Assembly (NCBI GenBank): GCA_022496805.1
Contig: CM040087.1
Location: forward strand, 29,412,253-29,476,252
Source: Pohlia nutans
Lineage: Eukaryota; Streptophyta; Bryopsida; Bryales; Mniaceae
Reading direction: 5' to 3'
DNA: 64,000 nucleotides
Below, one piece after another: positions 7,273 through 64,000 of this stretch. Within the stretch, counting starts at the first letter, position 1. Every line of letters begins with the position of its first letter. The position numbers were made by a program, and so were the translations under genes. Under the pieces are notes generated by a model that was not told the DNA's origin, searched no databases, and worked only from the letters and a program-made list of their open reading frames with translations.

Positions 7273-9888
7273 CTACGACAAGCGTTGCAGTCCAGCGTAT
7301 GTTGTTGAAATGACCAGGGGGTTAACCTTGTCTGTAAAGACAGTGGAATCAAGCTTGTCCATCAACAACCATACCTCGTCACAGTATTGTCTAGAAATAG
7401 CACGGAGGTAGCCGAGAGTGCACTTGCGCCATTGCTCTTCCTCCTGTGCATCAGCACACAAAGTGGTGCCACTTGTCTTCTTTGTGGCACCATCTTCTTC
7501 CGGGGGAGTTTCTTCATCAGCTTCCATTGCAGCCGGTGCTTCTTCAGCTTCTGCAGCGTCAACGACATCCTCCATCGGCTTCGCCGCCTCTGGCAAAGGC
7601 TGTGAGAGCCGGAGAGTCAACAAATCTGCAAAGCTTTGATAGACGGCCAAAAACAGCGCCTCCTGCTCCCGCAATGCCCGTGCCATTAGTGCCTCTTTCG
7701 ACTCCAATGAGTCCTGCGCTGACGTCTCTTCGTCTTGCGCTTTGTCCGCCACCGTCTTGGCCCAATCCACCTTTGCACTCAGAGAGTTTTTCGTGTCTTC
7801 ACTTTTCATTTCCGAGGATGATTTTGAAGCTGTCACAGCAGCCTCCCACTTGGAATGCGCTTTTGCTGTTCCTGCAATGGCCAGCTTGAGAGCCTTCTCG
7901 GCCGCGGCAATCTCCCTCCGCAAATCGACAGTGCGGTTGTTGGTCTTGTTGATGGCATTCCGCAGAATCTCCCAAACCTGATCCGAGGTATGAAACTGCT
8001 GCACATTCTGGGGTCCAAACACCCAGGCCACAATGGCTAAATTTGACACCATGCGGTATCCCATCATGCGGTCGATGACAATGGCAGCCATCTGCGCTGA
8101 GTTCCGCCATAGCTGCGAGACAGTCTCAATCATTCCAATCTGCGAACCGTGGTCAGGTGCAATCTTCCGGAAGATTTGCCCATACTTCTCCAGCACCGTC
8201 ACTGTGTGGGTGAAGCTCTTAGATCCAATGTAGAGCAGCGTTTGGGCCACGATTTGAATGGAGGCCTGCTGGCCTTGAGTTGGCAAGATCCGCTCGTCAA
8301 TCCACACCTGAATCTCCCGCACCGTTTTCTTCCCTCGCACAAGGCTCGTGAGCTCCGTAGCCAACGCGAATTTGGCTTCAGGAACCGCACCCTTGCTCTC
8401 GGGCGCATACACATACACCGGCGTGTTCTTGGGAGGAAGAAGTTCAATAAGCTTGGGCGTGGACGCGACGCTGTCTTTCACTTTCTCCCAGTACGCCAAC
8501 CGAACCTCCTTCTCCAGAACCTCCTTGGCAAACACGCGCTCCGGCGCCCACTTGGGAAGCTCGAGGATGTGCGCCCATTCTTCCCACGGCCACACGAACT
8601 GGAAATTTGAGAGATGGTGCGACAGCCACTGCACGAGCCGCGTCCGACACTCCACGTCCATCTCGGCCACGCGCTTGAACAGAGCGCGCACCGCGCCCGC
8701 CACCACGGCAGGAAACGCGCCTGGAAGCGCCTTGCAGAGGTCCACCATCACAACCGTGTAGTAAATGAGCCGGAAGGGCGGCTTGGGAAGCAACAGAAGC
8801 TGCGAAAACACGGTCTCTGCCATGATATACTCGTACCGGAACGGGACAGGAAGGCCGACCATGTATGCCGCGCACTCCTTGCGGCATCCATTGAGATGAA
8901 AGAGCACATCCAGAAGATACTCTTCGACAACAAACCTGTCAATGGGGGTGATTTTCTCGTCGGTTTTCGACGGAGGGAAGATGCGCAGGCGCATGTTGCG
9001 CCGCGGGTACGCCCGCTCTGCTTCCTGGCGTTGCTGACCAAGGGCAATCTCAGTTGCATTCTCCGGCGCTTTCGGAGTATCCGGAACTGTCACAGGGTCA
9101 AAATCATGGCTCTGCGTGTTCACGAGACGGGATTCGAACGAGAGGTGCGGGCGCGGGACGCTGTCAACCTTCCAAGAGTTTTCCATGAGGGCTTGAATGC
9201 TGGACCAGAGGCTCTCAAGATAGTCGTCCGATTCCGGTTTCATGTCCACGTCTTGGTTGTCGCTCCGCTGCTCGAAAACTTGCAGCGCGCTGTACACCAC
9301 ATTGGGCTTGCGCAGATTCAAATACGCCTCCACGCCGTTGAGCACGCGCTCGAGCTCTTCCGGGACGCGCTCCGAGAGCTCGATGCCGCCCCAGGGGAGC
9401 GACGCGAGGATGCAGAAGACGTAGAAATCCGCGCGGGCTTGCCAGGCCGGGTTGCCGGCGCCGTCCTCGTCCACCGTGGTGGCCGCGGAGGAGACGAGCG
9501 CCTCGTAGAGCTCGATGAGCGACGCGGGGGACACCACGCTGTTGCACATGAGCACGGTCAAGAAGCGCATCAGGATGCGCAGCTTGTTGCAATTGTGGGT
9601 GTCGAGCGCTTCCTGGATCCCCGCGTGCGTCCGGTACACCACCTTCCCCACGAACTCCTTGTCCTCCGTGTTGATCAGCCCCACGAGCGCGCCGTACAGC
9701 GGGTCCTTGTGCGGGAGCTCCTCCACGCATTGCATCAGCAGCGCCAGAATCTCGCTGCTGCTGTGCGCCAGGTCGCGCGCCAGGTACCCGAAGCACGTCT
9801 CCACGTGATCCTCCGCGTCCGCGAGACCTCCATACTCTTGGCATCGCTCGCCGATCCGCACCAACAACGAATGCCAACTCGCACTCAT
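7273..9888 (-). CDS. CBP80: Nuclear cap-binding protein subunit 1 (CBP80/ABH1), intron-free
   Basis: An uninterrupted 871-codon frame encodes a full-length homologue of CBP80, the large subunit that binds CBP20 on the 5' cap of RNA polymerase II transcripts and acts in splicing, export and miRNA processing. The plant N-terminal pattern is clear: LLxRIGxxCxEYG, then DHVETCFGYL, EELPHKDPLYGALVGLIN, NCNKLRILMRFLTVL and NPAWQARADFYVFCILASLPWGG (MIF4G-type helical repeats). MIF4G-like repeats 2 and 3 follow (YIMAETVFSQLLLLPKPPF, FVWPWEEWAHILELP, SQIGMIETVSQLWRN). A charged segment near residues 770-800 (PAAMEADEETPPEEDG) precedes the conserved end. Length fits plant CBP80 (about 850). The first ATG aligns with the family start. 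Coding GC is higher toward the 5' end. The absence of introns contrasts with the other genes here, so it may be a retrocopy that became the working gene, or an ancestral state. No frame damage is seen. Confidence 0.95.
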   Translation of the reverse strand: MSASWHSLLVRIGERCQEYGGLADAEDHVETCFGYLARDLAHSSSEILALLMQCVEELPHKDPLYGALVGLINTEDKEFVGKVVYRTHAGIQEALDTHNCNKLRILMRFLTVLMCNSVVSPASLIELYEALVSSAATTVDEDGAGNPAWQARADFYVFCILASLPWGGIELSERVPEELERVLNGVEAYLNLRKPNVVYSALQVFEQRSDNQDVDMKPESDDYLESLWSSIQALMENSWKVDSVPRPHLSFESRLVNTQSHDFDPVTVPDTPKAPENATEIALGQQRQEAERAYPRRNMRLRIFPPSKTDEKITPIDRFVVEEYLLDVLFHLNGCRKECAAYMVGLPVPFRYEYIMAETVFSQLLLLPKPPFRLIYYTVVMVDLCKALPGAFPAVVAGAVRALFKRVAEMDVECRTRLVQWLSHHLSNFQFVWPWEEWAHILELPKWAPERVFAKEVLEKEVRLAYWEKVKDSVASTPKLIELLPPKNTPVYVYAPESKGAVPEAKFALATELTSLVRGKKTVREIQVWIDERILPTQGQQASIQIVAQTLLYIGSKSFTHTVTVLEKYGQIFRKIAPDHGSQIGMIETVSQLWRNSAQMAAIVIDRMMGYRMVSNLAIVAWVFGPQNVQQFHTSDQVWEILRNAINKTNNRTVDLRREIAAAEKALKLAIAGTAKAHSKWEAAVTASKSSSEMKSEDTKNSLSAKVDWAKTVADKAQDEETSAQDSLESKEALMARALREQEALFLAVYQSFADLLTLRLSQPLPEAAKPMEDVVDAAEAEEAPAAMEADEETPPEEDGATKKTSGTTLCADAQEEEQWRKCTLGYLRAISRQYCDEVWLLMDKLDSTVFTDKVNPLVISTTYAGLQRLS

Positions 9889-30812: not shown

Positions 30813-30858
30813 CATGCATAGGATAGAACTCTTTTGGTAATTCTCGAACCTTTTTTTT

Positions 30859-31371
30859 CAGCGGACTTTGAATGTTTTTAACTATGTGAAAAAAACTGTT
30901 TTTCCAAAAAAAAAATTTGCACTAGATTATGCATGACTTTTTCTATATCTAGGATTTTTTTCATAATATTTCGAATTTTTTAATTTTTTGCCAAAATCGT
31001 GATGGCAGATCATGGCTGTGAGCTGTTTTTTTTTCAGCGGACTTTGAATGTTCTTAACTATGTGAAAAAAACTTTTTTTCCAAATTTTTTTTGCACTACA
31101 TTATGCAGGACGTTTTCTATATCTAGGATTTTTTACATAATATTTTGAATTTTTGAATTTTTTGCCAAAATCGTGATGGCAGATCATGGCTGTGAGCTGT
31201 TTTCTTTTTTTCAGCGGACTTTGAATGTTTTTAACTATGTGAAAAAAACTTTTTTTCCAAATTTTTTTTTGCACTAGATTATGCAGGACGTTTTCTATAT
31301 CTAGGATTTTTTTCATAATATTTTGAATTTATTTATTTTTTGCCAAAATCGTGGTGGTTGTGAGCTATTTT
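30859..31371. repeat. Three tandem 176-177 bp units
   Basis: Units beginning CAGCGGACTTTGAATGTT start at 30859, 31035 and 31212. Each holds AACTATGTGAAAAAAACT, TTTTCTATATCTAGGATTTT and TTTGCCAAAATCGTG. They lie inside the 30268-32012 element. Confidence 0.9.
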
Positions 31372-44527: not shown

Positions 44528-47353
44528 TGAGTGTTGAATGAATGGCAAAGACAGTCCAACAGTTTGGTGCGACACTGACTGTACGTACTAATTAAACAAA
44601 AGGAAAGCAGCACCGATGGCTCACGGCAAACACAAAATAAAAATAAAAACTTGATTGATTAGAGTAACCTCAATTATCAATGACCTCGGTGCGCCCATAG
44701 GGGTTCGACCAAGGGCGATAAATCAGAGATGGGGAGTCCAGCCTTCTTCCGACGTCGACGTTCCACTGCAATTTTCATGTTTTGCATGCAGACAGGTTTG
44801 GAGAGAGCACGAAGTTGCAGCTGGTTGTAAGACTCATGGCGGGGGGTGGCATGCTTGATGAAGTCATGCAGGCGTTGCCCGGCGGCACTACATGCGGTGG
44901 GTGTCCAAAGGGAGTCAAAGGAATCTTCGCCTCTCTTTCCTCGCGGCGCCTGATCTTCTGAGCGTCGGCCTGCGATTTTTCTTGATCACGTCGCAGCTTG
45001 GACCTCTCAACTTCTTTACACTTCTTCTCACGCTCTTCACCTGCTACGGCCTTCTTGGCAGACTTATCAGCCATCATCTTCAGATACTCATCCGTGGTCA
45101 ATATTATGCTCTTAGAGTAGTCAACGTATGGTTGATCGCCACGGTCTCGTGGTGCGGGGCGCACATGCTCCGGGAGCGACAAGAAGCTCATGATGTTGGG
45201 CGGGTCGGAGCTCATGGATAGTGTTGTTTGATGAGCAGTAGACTCGTTGCCACTCTCGGGCAGTGCAAAGTTGCCCTCCTCTTCCGTAATCTCGGCCACA
45301 AAGTACTGCCGCGGTTGGATATTCTCGGGCTGCGTCTCTGGAATGACGATGTCATTCGTGATGTCTTCTACAACCAAACTATCAAGCTCATGTTGAAGCT
45401 GCTCCACTCCAGGCATCACCAAGGGCTCCTCTTCATCGGCGGATCGGAAGCATTCGCTGGGTGCCATCTTGCCGACCATCTTGCTATCGTCCAAGGGCCA
45501 AATTCCGCACGCCTCAAAACCCTTCTTGATGTTATTCTCGGTCATGGCCTTGCGGAGGGACAAGGATACCCATTGGGCGAGTATTTCCTTCGTTGCGAGC
45601 TCACCGTTGTGGCTCAAAGACCACACATCCCTGTACATGCGAAATGCAGTCTTGAATGGCTTGAATATTGATACATCAAGCGGTTGAAGAGCATGCGATG
45701 TGTGCGAGGGTAGGGTGATCATGTCGAGCCTTGCTTCTCTGGCCTGTCTCACTGCATCTAGAGTCACGTGGCTGTTATGCCCGTCAAGAATAAGCAGGTG
45801 CCGACAAGTAGATGAAATATCACCTTGTCGATTCACAGCTTCAATGAAATGAGATAGCTACTTTGAAAACAGAATGCCCGTCATCCATGCATGTGGCTGC
45901 ATGGCCATGGTTGCGCCTGCCTCACACTTCTCTATGAAATTTCTGCGAAATCTTTTACCTTTGAAAATATAAAAATTCAGGATCGTGCCACCCGCCGCAT
46001 TCATGCATGCAAGCACGCTTAGCCATTCCCGTTGATCAAGCATGACTGTGTGCACGTTCCTTGAACCCATCTTAGCCAAGACTAATCCACCACCATTGCG
46101 ACCCGCTTGCGCACCAGATTCATCACAATTCCACACTTGATGTGATGAGTAGCTGTGAGTCTCATAGAGCTTTGCTAAATTCGAATAAAAGGACGCCACA
46201 CTCTTCGGACACAAGCCACGAGCACGCCCTGCTTCCAATCCTTGCGAATGGTGCAAAGACAATTCGGGATGACGCTGCTTGAACCACTTAACCCATCCTT
46301 GGCCTGAGATACCATTCGTAAATGGAATCGCGCGGAATTGAGTGATCTCTGCAACCTTGAGTCGACATTGCGTGATTGTTATGGGATGCCCAATACTCTG
46401 CATTTTCATGACCCACTCCACGAGCAAAGACTCCTCGGCATGAGATAGCACTCCAGGGCGACCACGGTGTCTACCCACAGTCCGACCCATCAAATGATCA
46501 CGAAGGCTTGATGCTGGAATTCCATGAATACGCCCTGTCGCACGAATTCCTAAACCGTTGTCAATATCGTTGATAGCAGCTTGCAAGGCCTCCGTGGACC
46601 AATTCCCATTCTTCCTACGGCGTACGGGCCTCCAAAGAGGCTGAGAATTAAGCTCCGATGGAAGACTTCCATGTTCAGATGTCGGCAGTGTTGACCCGCG
46701 CACAAGTGGGGTCCCAAAATTTAAACGTGTTGCAGCCCGGCCTCCTCGTCCACCTGCGTTTCTTGCCGTCTCTTCCGCTGCACTGTGGAGCATGTCTGAG
46801 CGTCCTATAAGTTAAACACAACCTACTGGTGTTAGACTCCGCTTTCACAAACATCTTTGCATTTCAAATCAAAAATTTAAGATGGCTAGACAATTTAAGA
46901 ATGCTATGTGTAATTCTTGACAGTAGCCAAATTGATTCTATTGATCAGCATTCAATTTCAACATCACTGAGTACAGAGTAAGATATTGCAAATTTTCAAG
47001 TGCAAGCTAGCTTGATTTTATGTGATTCGTTAACTCACGTTACAACAAAAGCAGCATGAAAGTCTGAAAAATGAGTGACTTCAACCATTGATGTCAACAC
47101 CAGTGGTATTCAATTAATTTCCAAATAAATATCCCTTAACTTATCCTGACTTCTAAAACCTCGACTTGTATCAAAAATCCACATTTAATCCAGATATCCA
47201 AAAAGGATTTGCAAGATTTGCAAGAATTGCTCGGTGTGGAACCAAGTGACCAGCAACCTCACTCTCATTGCAAATCTGGTGAACCTTGAGTCTTTGTCAG
47301 TGAGACTTGATTCTTAAATCATTACTAAAATCATCTATTTACTTATATTTTAA

Positions 47354-56119: not shown

Positions 56120-56511
56120 CACTAAGTGACTTCATTGCTGAGAAATTGTAAATCTGAAAGCAAGCTATCCTAGGTGACTTCAATTGATCATGACAACATT
56201 TCTCCTGAGATTCCTAATTCTTGTAACTTTTGATTCAAATTCTCTAACGATTCCCAAAGATATCAAGAATGAGGGCTAAAGAATGTTACTTAGGTTTTTT
56301 CTTCCTCAAGAGTTTGGAGAAGGACAACTCCAACCTTGTGACCACTGGAAAAAGGCATTGTGGGAACACTCATTTTTTCTGAACTAAATACCACTGTAGC
56401 AAATATATTCCGTCCATGATTCCACTGAAATGCATTCTCGTTTTCTATTCCGGCATAACGTTCGGTAGCCTCTTTTAGTGTTGCCTTTCCATAACAGAGT
56501 GATGTGAAATA
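56120..56511. other. Intergenic DNA
   Basis: No gene seen. From about 56465 the sequence GTAGCCT...GCC...CATAACAGAGTGATGTG(A/G)AATATC resembles 30183-30235. Confidence 0.5.
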
Positions 56512-56987
56512 TCCTACATCATTTCATCCCCCAATGAAATGATGTGGGAGATTCAACTCCTCATCACATCACTAGCTATGGGGACAGGTGGCATTAAGCA
56601 AGAACAATCAACCATGGTGAACAGGAATTCAAAACACTCCTCAATCACAATTCAACAATGTTCTATAATTATCCTACATCATTTCATCCCCCAATGAAAT
56701 GATGTGGGATATTCAATTCCTCATCACATCACTAGCTATGGGGACAGGTGGCATTAAGCAAGAACAATCAACCATGGTGAACAGGAATTCAAAACACTCC
56801 TCAATCACAATTCAACAATGTTCTATAATTATCCTACATCATTTCATCCCCCAATGAAATGATGTGGAATATTCCTCATCACATCACTAACTATGGGGAT
56901 AGGTGGCATTAAGCAAGAACAATCAACCATGGTGAACAGGAATTCAAAACACTCCTCAATCACAATTCAACAGTGTTCTATAATTAT
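56512..56987. repeat. Three tandem 160-bp units each with a perfect hairpin
   Basis: Units start at 56512, 56672 and 56832 (TCCTACATCATTTCATCCCC). Each includes the 11-bp-stem hairpin CATCATTTCAT-CCCCCA-ATGAAATGATG and the segment TATGGGGA(C/T)AGGTGGCATT...CCATGGTGAACAGG. The units are nearly identical, so the amplification is recent. Confidence 0.92.
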
Positions 56988-58723: not shown

Positions 58724-61700
58724 ATGACGGACATAAACCCCTTCCTGGGCGAAAATTACCAGGAGCTTGTTGCCAAGCGTGGAAATGATTCAACCGCTAT
58801 GGAGGACTCGGTGGAAGCGCAGGCAGAAATGTCACATTATCAGAGTAGTAGCGCGGAGGCCGATTTAGGTCTCAAGACGGTTATTGAAGAGGAGGATGCA
58901 CATCGAGTAGCAAGTTACAAGGCAGCTTTACAGCACTTCCCAGTGAAGAGGGCGAGGGTAGATCCCCTGCCAGTCTTTGATCCTGAATCCCTCAAGGACC
59001 ATCGTCATGCCGGTGTTGCGTATTCAAGTACAAGCCAGGCTTCTTCGTATGGCGCACAACAAGTGGGATCAAACAAGGCGTCCACTTCTGATGAAGAAGA
59101 ACATCTTCGAGAGGACAGTTCTCTTCGTGTTCCTGATGAAGATGACCAACCGAATGAGATGTTCCAGCTTTGCTTTGTCGCCCCAAAGTCAATCTCTGAT
59201 TGCAGGGGATTCGTGCGATACGAGGTAACTTTCCATTCTCTTGCTTTGTTATCATCGTGACTTTTCCTGGATCTAGTTGTGTTTCTTTGCATCAAGCTCG
59301 GGATAACAAGAAATTCGTGCAATTCATTCGTTAAAATTGCCTTGTTTTATTCAATGTCAACTTTATACTATCCAAATATCACAACTGAGATGGCGTTCAC
59401 ATTGCTCCTGTTGAACATGTACACTGATTGCTAGCAACGTTAGGGGAGTAGCTATATAACAACATTATGGTTCCTAAATGTTGCGTAATAAGCTGTAACG
59501 GTGCTTGAGTTACTCCCCTACGTTCCTAGTAATGTATGTAGCATGCTCAAGTTGACAAGGGTGCAAGCTTAACCCCTAAAGGACCACAAGGCCACCAGGT
59601 GGCTCCTGTTTTTTTCAGTGATTTTGAGTAGGTTTTTATGTAGATTCTTTTTTTTTAATTTAATTTAATTTTTATTCAACATATATAATATTCTTCACTG
59701 ATTCAAGTGATATAAAATTTGGTCCCATTCAAATTATAATTTTCACAATATGATTGTTTAAACTTGTCATTTTAAAACCATGAATCCTTGGGTCCTTTGG
59801 GGGTTAAAATGCATGCAATGAATTATTGTAAGCTTGTTATCTCACCCCCTGCATCACTTGCACATGATGTTGGTTCAATTTTTAAGCTTAGTTCGCTAGT
59901 ATAAATCATAGAAATGTGGAATCACTAAACATAGCGCATGTTTTTGTTTGGTTTGAACAGGGACATGGAGAGGAGGAACGAGTGGAGATGCACCTGGAGC
60001 CAACTCTCGACGTGTTCGGCTTACCATTCAATTTCTGGTTCTCCGATTCGCTTCCCCGGAGGGCGGAACGCAACACAGGACTTGCATATCACTTCACCAT
60101 CAGCGACACTCACGTTTCCGCGGGGCTCATCGGCTCCTTTTTGAACAATCTGAGTGGGTCGAAGCAGGACTCTGAGAGGGAGGTAATCTCAACCATCAAG
60201 GAACTCAGCAAACGCCTGTCGTTTCGGTTCGACGTGGTGAACGAAAGAGGTGAATTTTTTTATTGATCGCTAACTTGCTATTTGAAAACAGTGGACTTGC
60301 TATGTTGCTATAAGAATTATTGGGTAAAAAAATAGAGTATATCGCCATAATCTGCCCTTATCATTAGTATGCATTAAAGCCAAGAACTCTGTAGAAAGCA
60401 ATGTATTTGTAGTAATTTTTTTGTGAAATGCTTTCTATTTTTCAAGTTTTAATTTTCGAATCGCCAATGGGACTACCTTGAAAAAATGAAAAAACAAACC
60501 GCAGGTGAGTTCCTCAAAAGCGACGCGCTGGGTGTCGTCCAGTGGCTAGCTCTGATGACCCAGATGATCTTTGTGGCGAACTCCTCCAACATTGTGGAGT
60601 GTGTGCGGGAGTTTTTGCGCGTTCGCTATGGAAATAAACTCAGAGAGTTTCGAGGGTACTACGGTAATAAGCAGTGAATTTTTTTTCTGGCTATATTGAT
60701 CGCCAACTTGCTATTTGGAAGCTATGTTGCCATAAGAAAAATTGGGTAAACAAATAGAGTATATCGCCATAATCTTCCCTTTCATTGGTATGCATTATAA
60801 CCAAGAACTCTATCGAAAGCTATGTATTTGTAGTAGTTTTTTCTGTAAATCGCCAAGAAATGCTTTCTCCTGATTTTCATTTTCTTCGATGATATAAACT
60901 TCATCAAAGCTATGGAAGTCACATTTCATTATACATATACTTTTCAAGTTTCAATTTCTAATCGCCAATGGGACTCCCTTGAAAAAATGAAAAAAAAAAT
61001 CGCAGGTAATAATAAGGCGTTACTCGGCACGGTAGCCAACTGGCTTGCGCGAGTTGCAGATGCCTATGGAGGCTCCAAGATGCCGGACGGAGCGCACAGG
61101 AAAACCATTGGACTCAAAATGTTTCTCCTCTGCCTGGGAACGTTTGAGACTCTCAAGGAACTGGGTCGCTCTGATGAAGGGCAACCTGAGAAGCTGTACG
61201 ACGCTTATGCAGTCGTGCTCAACTCTCTGCACAAATTCTCAGTCTCAGGATGTAAGTACCAGCGAATTCTTTTTACAAGTGGCTATATTGATCGTCAACT
61301 TGCTATTTCAAAACAATGGGCTTGCTATGTTAGTTGCTATAAGAAATACTGGGTAAAAAAATTGAGTATATCGATCGCCATAATCTTCCCTTACCATTGG
61401 TATGTATTATAGCCAAGAGCTAGACTATAGAAAGCTATGTATTTGTAGTAAAAGAAATGTTTTTTGTTTCTCAAGTTTCAAATTGCCAACGGGACTCCCT
61501 GAAACTGTTTTTGGCAGGTGAGTACAATCCGCCCACAATTACCAAACGCATCTTTCAGGAAGGCGTTTCGGATCTGGTTGCACGGGTTTCCCGATTCTCC
61601 TACGACTGGATCTCGCTCATTGAGATTCTTGGCAGGCATGACCCCACGTTCAGTTTCCTGGACAGAGTGACGGAGTTTCAGCTCGACATGAAAGAGGGGT

Positions 61701-64000
61701 CCATGCGACGAAACGCGGAGCAAGCGTACCGAGCTGCTGTCAGCAGCATGCTGGAGACGAACGAGTCCTTCTGCAAATCGAAGGAGCTTCGAAAGCTCTC
61801 GTTTCGGAAAGCCTTGTCTGCAGCTCCCACGTTTCCCAGCTTTTTAGTGGAGTCTCGTGAGCTCCGCGTGTGGATGAGAACCGCAACCGATTGGGACCAG
61901 TCTAGCGAGAATGTAGACGACGAGATTCGTGCTGAGCTTCAAGATGCGCTCCATCAGTGGTTTACGAAAGTAATGCCGGATGTGCGGCACCAGTCTCACC
62001 GCCGGAAGGCCACGAATCTGCAGCAGCATCTGGAGCTTATCGTTGCACGGGTGGATTCATCTGACCAAGAGAATTCGAATTCGGTCGTGCTGCCCGGGTT
62101 TCTTGCTTCGTCGTTCCGGACTCACGTCGTGGAAATTCTGCTGCAGATCATGTCCAAGCCGCCTTCGGAGTTCGGACGCAAATCTGATACCGACATGTCT
62201 TTGGTTGACACAACAGAGAAAATCGTGTTTAAGTACCAGTTTACGTTTCTGCTTCCGTTGCTGCCTGCTGAGTGTCGGCTGCTGCTGAAATTTGCATCTT
62301 CTGATGTTGACGAGTATTTCAACTTGAGTAAGGTGATCATTCAGAAAGTGGGCGAGTTCTATAATGCAGCAGCTCAGGAGGCTCCGGACGTGGAGCACGG
62401 TCTCAGTAAGGATGTGTTGCGGCCGTGGCTGTCGGCGTCTGTCAATCGCGGCAAGCAGCCGCTGTCTCCGTTGTCGTTTTTCCGGTGCGTGCAAGACATT
62501 TTCAATATGGGAGTGGATCCATCCAGTGCGTTTGGGAGGTGCTTGACGCAAGCCGCAGTGGCGTGCAGTCAACAACGGTCCCGAGGCCTTCAGCACTTCC
62601 TTGCCGAGTCGGACAGGATCAGCTCGCTTCACGAGTCGCTGCAAGTGCAGTACAAAAGCGCTGTTGTCACCAAGATTCACTGCCAGCTCCAGAGTGCAAC
62701 CAACGTCGCAGAGCTCGACAGGGTCAGTGAGCAGATCCTCCGGGGGCTGTGCGCTCAGCATGGCCATGTCGCATTGAGTGCTAAGGAGAAGTAAGCGCCC
62801 TTTTCCCACCTTACTAGTTTTAGATGAATTCGTTGATCTGATATTATTCTGATAGCACCAGGCTCTGTTTCTGATAACACCAGGGTCCATGGTCATATTC
62901 GTTACTGTGTTGGCAGTACCCGTATTAGTTTTGGATTCGTTGATCTGATATTATTCTGATAGCACCAGGGTCAATGGTCATATTCGTTACATTGGCAGTA
63001 CCGGTATTAGTTTTGGATTTGTTGATCTGATGTTATTCTGATAGCATCAGGGTCAGTTTTTGATAGACCAGGGTCCGTGGTTATATTCGTTACATTGGCA
63101 GTATTCCACGAAATTGACAAAGTTAGGCTTATTGCAAGGAACTGGCGCAGTTTTGAGATTGCCCAACTAAAACCTTCAATTGGCGGACTGAACCTCAAGT
63201 ATATAATATCTATCATAGATTTAAGAGCTCGAATGCCACATTTTTGGCTCTCCGAAATTTTTCATTTTAACAAATTTGACCATCTTGGCTTTAGAATTTG
63301 GACGCCTGCTTCAAGCTTTTGGCACGCGGGTTTAAGAAAAGTTTATCAGACCAGGGTCAGATGTTTGTCTGGCATTAATACTTTGAAAATGATGGCCCAG
63401 GGACCACACACGGTCCTTGATACAGTTCATTTTGAAGCTCGCAGATAGTCTCATGGAACTGTACGTTGATATAATTCATGTGGTTTCAGGATTCAGGTGG
63501 AGCTTTGCGTAGCGCTCTTGGACAAGATGGCTGAAAACCCAGTGTTTGTGGAAAGCCTGACGCAGCGAGCGTTCCAGACGATATCAACCTCGAATTTCGC
63601 ATGCTGCTTGCTACAATTACAGGTAGCCCCGCCGCCGATCAAAGAGCATTGGATTTATCTGAAAGTGCAGGAAGCCTGTCATGCCTTTGGCACCTTAGTG
63701 GTGCAGGGGGAAGTCAGAATGGGCACTATTGATAGTGTTTCACGCACCGACAAGTGGGGATCCATCTTGAAGTCGTTAGGATACAAGGCAGCCTCGGTGG
63801 CACTCGAAGACGCGTGCAAAGAGCTCGTTCTGTACAGAAAGAGGCTGCTAGCGTGCGATATTCTGGCCACTTTGTGTGGGTATTTAGGTGCCAAGGGATA
63901 TCCTATTCAAGGAATTCAGAGCTGGTCCACAGACCTCGCAGCCAGGAAAGAGACATGGATGACAAAACGCCTGCGGACGGTTGCCGAAAGCTCACAGTGG
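58724..64000 (+). CDS. 5' part of a very large gene, family uncertain (RNF213-like is one possibility)
   Basis: Exons: 58724-59224, 59961-60249, 60505-60663, 61006-61251, 61518-62790, 63490 to the window edge. All junctions keep frame and give 993 residues so far, with the stop outside. Residues 1-140 are acidic and low-complexity (TSDEEEHLRED). From about 150 a folded region begins (FQLCFVAPKSISDCRGFVRYE, then LDVFGLPFNFWFSDSLP). The rest is mostly helical, Leu-rich and without membrane segments or an enzymatic motif. The size, an N-terminal disordered segment followed by a helical arm, recalls the amino-terminal arm of RNF213-type giant AAA+/RING proteins, but I cannot confirm this without the AAA part. 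Introns 2-4 are mutual copies and intron 5 has tandem repeats. The start is the first ATG after a plausible acceptor. Confidence 0.8.
59431..59529. mobile_element. Small 99-bp MITE in intron 1 of the 58724 gene
   Basis: CTAGCAACGTTAGGGGAGTA (59431) is repeated inverted as TACTCCCCTACGTTCCTAG (to 59529). The body is short and there is no coding capacity. The target duplication is unclear. Confidence 0.7.
59573..59803. mobile_element. TTAA-flanked element, 231 bp, intron 1 of the 58724 gene
   Basis: TTAA at 59569-59572 and 59804-59807; ends CCCCTAAAGGACCACAAGG and TTGGGTCCTTTGGGGG. It is the intact reference for the decayed copies in HUB introns 4, 7 and 17. Confidence 0.85.
60250..61517 (+). 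repeat. Three homologous introns (introns 2, 3 and 4 of the 58724 gene)
   Basis: Introns 60250-60504 (255 bp), 60664-61005 (342 bp) and 61252-61517 (266 bp) share, in order: ATTGATCGC(T/C)AACTTGCTAT, GCTATAAGAA, TGGGTAAA, GAGTATATCG, CGCCATAATCT, GCCAAGA, AAAGC(A/T)ATGTATTTGTAGT, TTCAAGTTT, and (A/T)TCGCCAATGGGACT near the acceptor. All are phase 1. The exons between them (159 and 246 nt) show no obvious similarity. Confidence 0.9.
62815..63115. repeat. Three tandem units in intron 5 of the 58724 gene
   Basis: Units starting TAGTTTT(A/G)GAT...CGTTGATCTGATATTATTCT begin at about 62815, 62925 and 63007. Each contains GATAGCACCAGGGTC and GGTCATATTCGTTAC-like blocks; unit lengths are about 110, 82 and 105 bp. 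Confidence 0.85.

What the first reader, a model, noticed from the sequence alone, without database searches (positions are those of the whole stretch)
60250..61517. Three consecutive introns are copies of one another
Introns 2, 3 and 4 of the 58724 gene match nearly end to end (shared blocks from about 20 bp after the donor to the acceptor), are all phase 1, and separate exons that do not look duplicated. Ordinary introns diverge quickly and are not paralogous. Introner-like elements or intron transposition are known to multiply introns in some algae and fungi; a case in a plant gene would be notable. Alternatives are intron-to-intron gene conversion or an old segmental duplication with fast exon divergence.
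Basis: seen in the sequence. Interest (0 to 1): 0.88.

Follow-up and report, generated by a model that had tools for sequence, protein, structure and literature searches.

The report
Moss transposon that becomes new introns
Three look-alike introns in a moss gene are insertions of one small jumping DNA element whose target-site duplication and own end appear to supply the splice sites, which shows how a land plant may gain introns.

Summary
Introns 2-4 (60250-60504, 60664-61005, 61252-61517) are 84-90% identical over aligned columns; their exons are not alike. They belong to a dispersed family of ~270-bp hAT-like MITEs (1302 and 1534 first-look candidates; 40 scored per search). The genome is the moss Pohlia nutans: two scaffold lengths match its paper. 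Of 71 two-ended copies, 20 have exact 8-bp target duplicates (0.10% of shuffled pairs), with the hAT consensus nTnnnnAn. In coding exons the first duplicate supplies the 5' splice site; the 3' splice site is the element's altered end (..CAG) or a CAG in the second duplicate. Predicted joins leave long open frames (23 of 29 copies; frameshifted 11 and 6); in 9 of 15 joined proteins a family match spans the junction. Two homologous proteins run through all three positions. This fits an Introner family in a land plant, where the 2022 survey reported none. Splicing is untested (no RNA), and the transposase search did not complete.

The parts
60250..60504 (+). Intron 2: hAT-like MITE copy. Its first duplicate looks fused with the element start (donor GTGAATTT), ends CCGCAG
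   Evidence: boundary
60505..60512 (+). Second target-site copy of intron 2, now exon 3 start (GTGAGTTC); the donor side matches it at 6 of 8 bases
60664..60671 (+). First target-site duplicate of intron 3 (GTAATAAG) = 5' splice site
60672..61005 (+). MITE copy forming intron 3 (CAGTGAATT...TCGCAG), with an extra ~72-bp stretch not aligned in the homeolog
61006..61013 (+). Second target-site duplicate of intron 3 (GTAATAAT), now exon 4 start
61252..61259 (+). First target-site duplicate of intron 4 (GTAAGTAC) = 5' splice site
   Evidence: homeolog
61260..61517 (+). MITE copy forming intron 4 (CAGCGAATT...GGCAG)
61518..61525 (+). Second target-site duplicate of intron 4 (GTGAGTAC), now exon 5 start
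58724..62791 (+). Host gene, exons 1-5 (58724-59224, 59961-60249, 60505-60663, 61006-61251, 61518-62791); no Pfam family; homologs P0001 and P0002

Best explanation
Introns 2-4 are insertions of one non-autonomous hAT-like DNA transposon (a MITE of about 270 bp) into coding exons of a gene of the moss Pohlia nutans. Insertion duplicates 8 bp of target. Shown by sequence: target sites follow nTnnnnAn; where the target starts GT, the first duplicate sits at the 5' splice site and the element's own last bases (CAG) at the 3' splice site; where the target holds CAG|GT, the two duplicates hold both sites. Inferred: the spliceosome removes the element plus one duplicate, so the mRNA is unchanged; an hAT transposase supplied in trans moved the element; selection kept insertions with donor-like targets and favoured AG at the element end.
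For: Duplications: 20 of 71 two-ended copies have exact 8-bp duplicates and 27 at most 1 mismatch, against 0.10% and 0.42% of shuffled pairs; no comparable excess at lengths 4-7 or 9-12. Consensus: T at position 2 in 18 of 27, A at position 7 in 18 of 27; nTnnnnAn is a known hAT (Hermes) target. Splice geometry: in the 71-copy set 15 of 15 AG-ended copies are followed by GT, against 8 of 56 others. In a genome-wide pattern count 14 of 15 CGCAG ends are followed by GT (Fisher P = 1.7e-8 against the 8 of 56). Exon starts after AG ends are GTRAG in 11 of 25, against 10 of 533 exonic GTs (P = 3.5e-13). In 30 copies picked without regard to flanks, 7 have YAG|GT within 7 nt of the end, against 80 of 12000 random positions. 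Frames: at least 60 codons open on both sides in 23 of 29 predicted joins, against 11 and 6 for frameshifted joins and 8 antisense; Wilcoxon P = 1e-4; emptied non-splice sites 4 of 42 sense, 2 of 42 antisense. A family match spans the junction in 9 of 15 joined proteins. P0001 and P0002 run on through all three positions. The C4 homeolog shares all three introns.
Against: No RNA evidence was available. 44 of 71 copies have no 8-bp duplicate within 1 mismatch. Intron 2's first duplicate is imperfect. Frameshift controls are high because exons are GC-rich; in 4 of 29 copies a shifted frame is longer (L028, L034 twice, L079 with its first donor), and L013 and L028 fail. Of the later CGCAG copies, L091 and L093 pass the frame test, L092 fails, L094 gave none, and the 511-bp stretches L097-L104 are too short to tell. 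L092, L094 and L097 lack a preserved 5' end. The bases before the acceptor are A-rich in i2 and i3, not a pyrimidine tract. No transposase was found because that search did not complete. L001-L060 were fetched with introns as queries, so they lean to intron-like copies.
Confidence: 0.9

Rival explanations
1. A dedicated introner subfamily carries its own CAG 3' splice site and moves as such, instead of gaining AG after insertion.
For: CGCAG, two changes away from the common CACTG, recurs in many copies; the TTGATC variant is enriched in AG-ended copies (16 of 24 against 17 of 56, P = 0.003); slight clustering on the tree (17 changes against 20.4 shuffled, 31 of 500 as low; firm branches force only 4).
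Against: A mobile AG-ended subfamily should also leave copies at non-GT sites, yet only 1 of 15 CGCAG ends lacks GT. Several AG ends occur (CGCAG, CTCAG, CACAG, CCAG, GGCAG).
Confidence: 0.35
2. MITEs landed inside older, unrelated introns (secondary insertion), so no intron was created.
For: MITEs commonly insert in introns (general knowledge); in 42 of 71 sampled copies no splice-site arrangement was seen at the ends.
Against: Similarity reaches both splice sites and the duplicates coincide with them; homologs appear to lack the three introns.
Confidence: 0.04
3. Intron-to-intron gene conversion or a tandem segmental duplication spread one intron along the gene.
For: Three similar introns lie within 1.3 kb, all phase 1; i3 is i2's closest relative outside its homeolog and the tree joins them at support 86; i2 has no clean duplicate.
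Against: i3 and i4 each have their own target duplicate; i4 is not close to i2 or i3; exons are not alike; copies occur on many chromosomes.
Confidence: 0.03
4. RNA-based intron transposition (reverse splicing of spliced introns), as proposed for fungal introner-like elements.
For: It would place whole introns in new exons in the sense direction.
Against: Exact 8-bp duplications, inverted terminal repeats CAGCGAATTTTTTT / CAGTGATGATTTTTTTTT, and 23 of 30 copies of a flank-blind sample without YAG|GT at the end.
Confidence: 0.02

Closest known systems
Introners of DNA-transposon type (Gozashti et al. 2022, PMC9860276; Results and Discussion read)
   Same: Similar introns in many genes, similarity reaching near the splice sites; target duplicates, inverted repeats; 5' splice site from the duplicate, 3' from the element, or both from the insertion site
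   Different: That survey reported no Introners in land plants; here the host is a moss, duplicates are 8 bp with nTnnnnAn, and 23 of 30 copies of a flank-blind sample show no YAG|GT at the end
Maize Ds insertions spliced as introns (Giroux 1994; Dennis 1988; Wessler 1991: titles seen only in reference lists; content recalled)
   Same: An hAT element in an exon removed by splicing
   Different: Those are single mutant alleles in a crop; here a natural family is spread through one genome, with open frames of at least 60 codons on both sides at 21 distinct predicted joins
hAT-type MITEs of plants (recalled)
   Same: Short, inverted repeats, 8-bp duplicates, many copies
   Different: A sizeable share of copies serve as introns of coding genes, by sequence evidence
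Transposon insertion into AGGT (mechanism described in PMC3443670, passages seen)
   Same: Class A copies are just this: duplicated CAG|GT gives both splice sites
   Different: That review left open whether any transposon preferentially makes introns; here one family gives a measurable share

Membership tests
Introner | Introns of different genes alike up to both splice sites | tested here: met
Introner | Insertion created the intron (empty site in relatives) | tested here: inconclusive
   P0001 and P0002 run through i2, i3 and i4, P0001 with a few extra residues near i3; that their gene caller ignores introns is inferred from where the proteins start and end. One gene only, no DNA seen
Introner | The element is spliced out of mRNA | not testable with these tools
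   No RNA data; reading frames and domains agree with splicing
hAT superfamily | 8-bp target-site duplication | tested here: met
   20 of 71 exact against 0.10% shuffled
hAT superfamily | Target consensus nTnnnnAn | tested here: met
   18 of 27 T at position 2, 18 of 27 A at position 7; consensus from PMC2803484 (passages)
hAT superfamily | Short inverted repeats starting CAGNG (recalled) | tested here: met
   CAGCGAATT at 5', CAGTGAT at 3' reverse complement
hAT superfamily | A related transposase gene with the same ends | not tested
   Search for PF05699 asked ten times, never answered
MITE | Short, multi-copy, inverted repeats, no gene | tested here: met
   270-bp consensus from 68 copies, mean divergence 5-6% (copies chosen by similarity, so low), 1302 and 1534 first-look candidates; that it codes for nothing is inferred from its length
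Intron gene conversion / segmental duplication | No independent target duplicates; sister introns nearest relatives | tested here: not met
   Own duplicates at i3 and i4; i4 not near the others, though i2's nearest outside its homeolog is i3

The most novel reading that the evidence does not exclude
An ordinary hAT MITE, not a specialised introner, has given this moss a few hundred new introns: its nTnnnnAn target supplies GT donors, and AG acceptors evolved after insertion under selection. Intron birth in a land plant would then be a countable and perhaps ongoing process. The number is my extrapolation of 7 of 30 (6 of 29 with one homeolog pair counted once) to about 1300-1500 candidate places, most of them unscored.
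Probability: 0.5. Interest if true: 0.87.

Novelty: new variant of a known kind. Interest (0 to 1): 0.82.

Why it matters
Where new introns come from is a long-standing question, and the main survey reported Introners in no land plant. This moss family shows exact target duplicates, two routes to splice sites and moderate divergence (about 5% from consensus in the sampled copies), in a sequenced species for which transcriptome studies are published (listed). That makes the proto-splice-site idea, and the question whether splice sites come with the element or evolve afterwards, directly testable in a plant.

Tried and rejected
Other copies inside the window: blastn with intron 2 showed nothing beyond introns 3 and 4 except short matches (best 29 bp, E 0.004); the printed list was cut at 60 rows, all from intron 2, and nhmmer printed nothing. 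The host gene by Pfam: no family. A sixth exon tried did not stay open and was not used. A virus-contig scan with the gene found no relative. Rfam on the window, L095 and L096 found nothing at the gathering score. Guessing organelle contigs (C331, C332) to name the species led nowhere; the species came from scaffold lengths. A tree to decide between a mobile AG-ended subfamily and repeated gain of AG was weak: 8 of 74 inner branches firm. The first frame test, with the longest frame and shifted controls, was not sharp, so the smaller of the two sides was used. In the 71-copy set the end of intron 4's homeolog was placed before its real acceptor and counted as not AG; it is one of the four non-splice sense copies with open frames, and two others (L004, L005) are near-identical copies on C13 and C14, so probably homeologs. 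The window's own intron 4 was not in that set. One nested duplicate (L024) was dropped before the counts, 72 to 71. Nine of the 30 pattern loci did not enter the two-ended set, some because they were already there. Never answered: intron 4 as query, RuBisCO, own-genome protein search for intron-free paralogs, 5'-end pattern. On the one-time check I found that i2's nearest relative outside its homeolog is i3, added it, raised the gene-conversion rival from 0.02 to 0.03, and set the empty-site test to inconclusive.

Full report
Observation. The gene at 58724 has exons 58724-59224, 59961-60249, 60505-60663, 61006-61251 and 61518-62791; a sixth exon tried there did not stay open. Introns 2, 3 and 4 are 255, 342 and 266 bp, all phase 1. 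Aligned columns are identical at 219/242 (i2-i3), 194/232 (i2-i4) and 202/239 (i3-i4); the exons share only short words, best E 0.078. Each intron holds an in-frame stop (read).

What the ends show. Intron 3 begins GTAATAAG and exon 4 begins GTAATAAT. Intron 4 begins GTAAGTAC and exon 5 begins GTGAGTAC. Right after these 8 bases the introns start CAGYGAATT, and they end ..GCAG. Intron 2 begins GTGAATTT against exon start GTGAGTTC; it looks as if its first duplicate was lost into the element start, which also reads GTGAATT (inference).

The family. Searching the window's own genome gave 1302 and 1534 first-look candidates; 40 were scored in each search, giving 40 and 80 match rows. An exact 3'-end pattern with CACTG has 48 matches, control 0. 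From 71 unique two-ended copies (one nested duplicate dropped from 72) the 8-bp flanks are identical in 20 and differ by at most one base in 27; shuffled pairs give 0.10% and 0.42%, and lengths 4-7 and 9-12 show no comparable excess. The consensus of 68 copies is 270 bp with ends CAGCGAATTTTTTT and, reverse complemented, CAGTGATGATTTTTTTTT; mean divergence from it is 4.7-6.1% by class, in copies chosen for similarity. The duplicates follow nTnnnnAn, the consensus reported for the hAT element Hermes (PMC2803484, passages). CAGNG ends for hAT are recalled.

Two routes to an intron. Class B: the element ends in AG and the following exon starts with GT. All 15 AG-ended copies of the 71-copy set do so (13 when the two introns shared with the C4 homeolog are counted once), against 8 of 56 other copies. 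A genome-wide pattern for CGCAG ends, asked without GT, gives 16 places; one of these is really CACTG followed by GTCGCAG; of the other 15, 14 are followed by GT (13 of 14 with the homeolog pair counted once). Three of the 14 (L092, L094, L097) lack a preserved 5' end, so only their 3' side is known. Exact GT-starting duplicates occur at L017, L029, L091, L093, L098, L102 and L104. Exon starts are GTRAG in 11 of 25 (those three included), against 10 of 533 exonic GTs. Class A: the element keeps its common end and the target itself holds CAG|GT, so one duplicate holds the donor and the other the acceptor (for example CAGGTTAA in L067 and L071, CAGGTCAG in L040). In the 30 fetched of the 48 pattern hits, chosen without regard to flanks, 7 have YAG|GT within 7 nt of the end (L067 and L071 share flanks, so 6 of 29 independent), against 80 of 12000 random positions.

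Reading frames. For 29 splice-type copies (26 with homeologs counted once) the predicted join leaves at least 60 open codons on both sides in 23; frameshifted joins do so in 11 and 6, the antisense strand in 8; the correct join beats both shifts in 25 of 29 (Wilcoxon P = 1e-4). Emptied non-splice sites do so in 4 of 42 sense and 2 of 42 antisense. The shift controls are high because exons are GC-rich. L013 and L028 fail and are probably not introns. L079, scored with a poor donor there, has 156 codons with a better one against 103 and 45. Of four later CGCAG loci with 1.6 kb each, L091 and L093 pass (67 against 32 and 27; 137 against 6 and 52), L092 fails and L094 gave no join; the 511-bp stretches L097-L104 are too short for this test. 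In 15 distinct joined proteins scanned, a single family match runs across the junction in 9: FAD_binding_4 (L006), LRRNT_2 (L010), sugar transporter (L067), DUF7792 (L051), TRAPPC9 (L039), GH77 (L075), MurG (L029), RlmK/L (L091) and Psb27 (L088); in GH77 and Psb27 only about 7-10 residues of the match lie before the junction, and in LRRNT_2 only about 7 after it. In L011, L040, L046, L089 and L093 no match spans it, and for L022 the table does not tell. The MurG and RlmK/L matches lie below the curated whole-protein cut-offs; the queries are fragments.

Age and empty sites. Two database homologs at 62-64% identity run on through all three positions; P0001 has a few extra residues near i3 but nothing the size of an element. 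They start in exon 2 and end where exon 5 ends, at the in-frame TAA of the next donor, as an unspliced open frame would. That their gene caller ignores introns is an inference, and their DNA was not seen. A homeolog on C4 shares all three introns, with exons 97-99% identical; a ~72-bp stretch of the window's intron 3 has no counterpart there. So the insertions are older than that duplication.

How close are the three. i4 has i2 and i3 only at ranks 43 and 29 of 68. i3's nearest relative outside the homeolog is L051 on C17 at 94.1%, with i2 at rank 10. For i2 the nearest outside its homeolog is i3, and a quick tree joins i2 and i3 (support 86). So i4 is a separate insertion; i2 and i3 may share a recent source or have exchanged sequence. 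Three family members in one gene remain unexplained.

Organism. Contig C1 is 52,153,166 bp and C17 is 30,709,574 bp. These equal the longest scaffold and scaffold N50 of the Pohlia nutans genome (PMC9247546, abstract and passages; 698.20 Mb, 22 chromosomes, recent genome duplication). Light-harvesting genes lie in matching places on C1/C2, C7/C8, C11/C12 and other pairs, as expected after genome duplication, and one such protein has its best single-domain PDB matches in 7xqp and 8htu, which I recall as Physcomitrium.

How it most likely works. Shown: insertion with 8-bp duplicates, splice-site geometry, open frames after removal, dispersed family. Inferred: trans-acting hAT transposase, splicing, and selection. 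Whether AG ends came with the element or arose later is open. One CGCAG end in 15 without GT, and several kinds of AG end, favour later gain; enrichment of a TTGATC variant (16 of 24 against 17 of 56, P = 0.003) favours a subfamily. The tree is too weak to decide (17 changes against a shuffled mean of 20.4, 31 of 500 shuffles as low, 4 changes forced by firm branches).

Compared with what is known. PMC9860276 (Results and Discussion read in two parts) describes Introners with the same kinds of splice-site recruitment and states that among animals and land plants they were found in two groups, both animals. Searches for introner with moss, liverwort, land plant, streptophyte or charophyte (25 of 7,039 papers listed, any two terms), for introners since 2022 (12 of 12 listed), for introner-like elements with MITE and hAT (15 of 161 listed) and for moss with intron gain (12 of 212 listed) showed no plant Introner family; the library holds open-licence papers only. 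PMC10487979 (passages) mentions Introners only by citing that survey. Single maize Ds insertions spliced as introns are known (titles in reference lists). [quoted passage not shown]

Limits. No RNA data, no census, no transposase, no other moss genome. The intron total of a few hundred is extrapolated from 7 of 30.

Noticed in passing
62869-63055: A tandem repeat (period 82, 2.2 copies) lies just after exon 5 of the same gene, in its next intron.
   Followed up: no
44775-46793: Two adjacent minus-strand frames with Tc5-type DNA-binding, Psq and DDE_1 domains: a Tc5/pogo-like transposase.
   Followed up: no
7273-9888: A cap-binding protein CBP80 homolog in one open frame of 871 aa; I recall plant CBP80 genes as having many introns, so this may be a retrocopy or intron loss.
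   Followed up: no
30851-31357 and 56510-56987: Tandem repeats with periods 174 and 160 bp.
   Followed up: no
60664-61005 (window) and C4:30919214-30919496: About 72 bp of the window's intron 3 has no counterpart in its homeolog (270 of 342 bases aligned): a change inside a young intron.
   Followed up: partly
L014, L015, L017, L102: Two or three extra bases (TAC, AAT, AC, TAC) stand between the first duplicate and the element start; unexplained.
   Followed up: no
G000 C11:23.80-23.90 Mb and C12:25.19-25.24 Mb: Large clusters of light-harvesting genes on two chromosomes (131 matches listed genome-wide).
   Followed up: no
L099 (C6:31783710-31784220): The only one of 15 CGCAG-ended copies not followed by GT (GCGCAG then GCC); its 5' end is poorly preserved.
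   Followed up: partly
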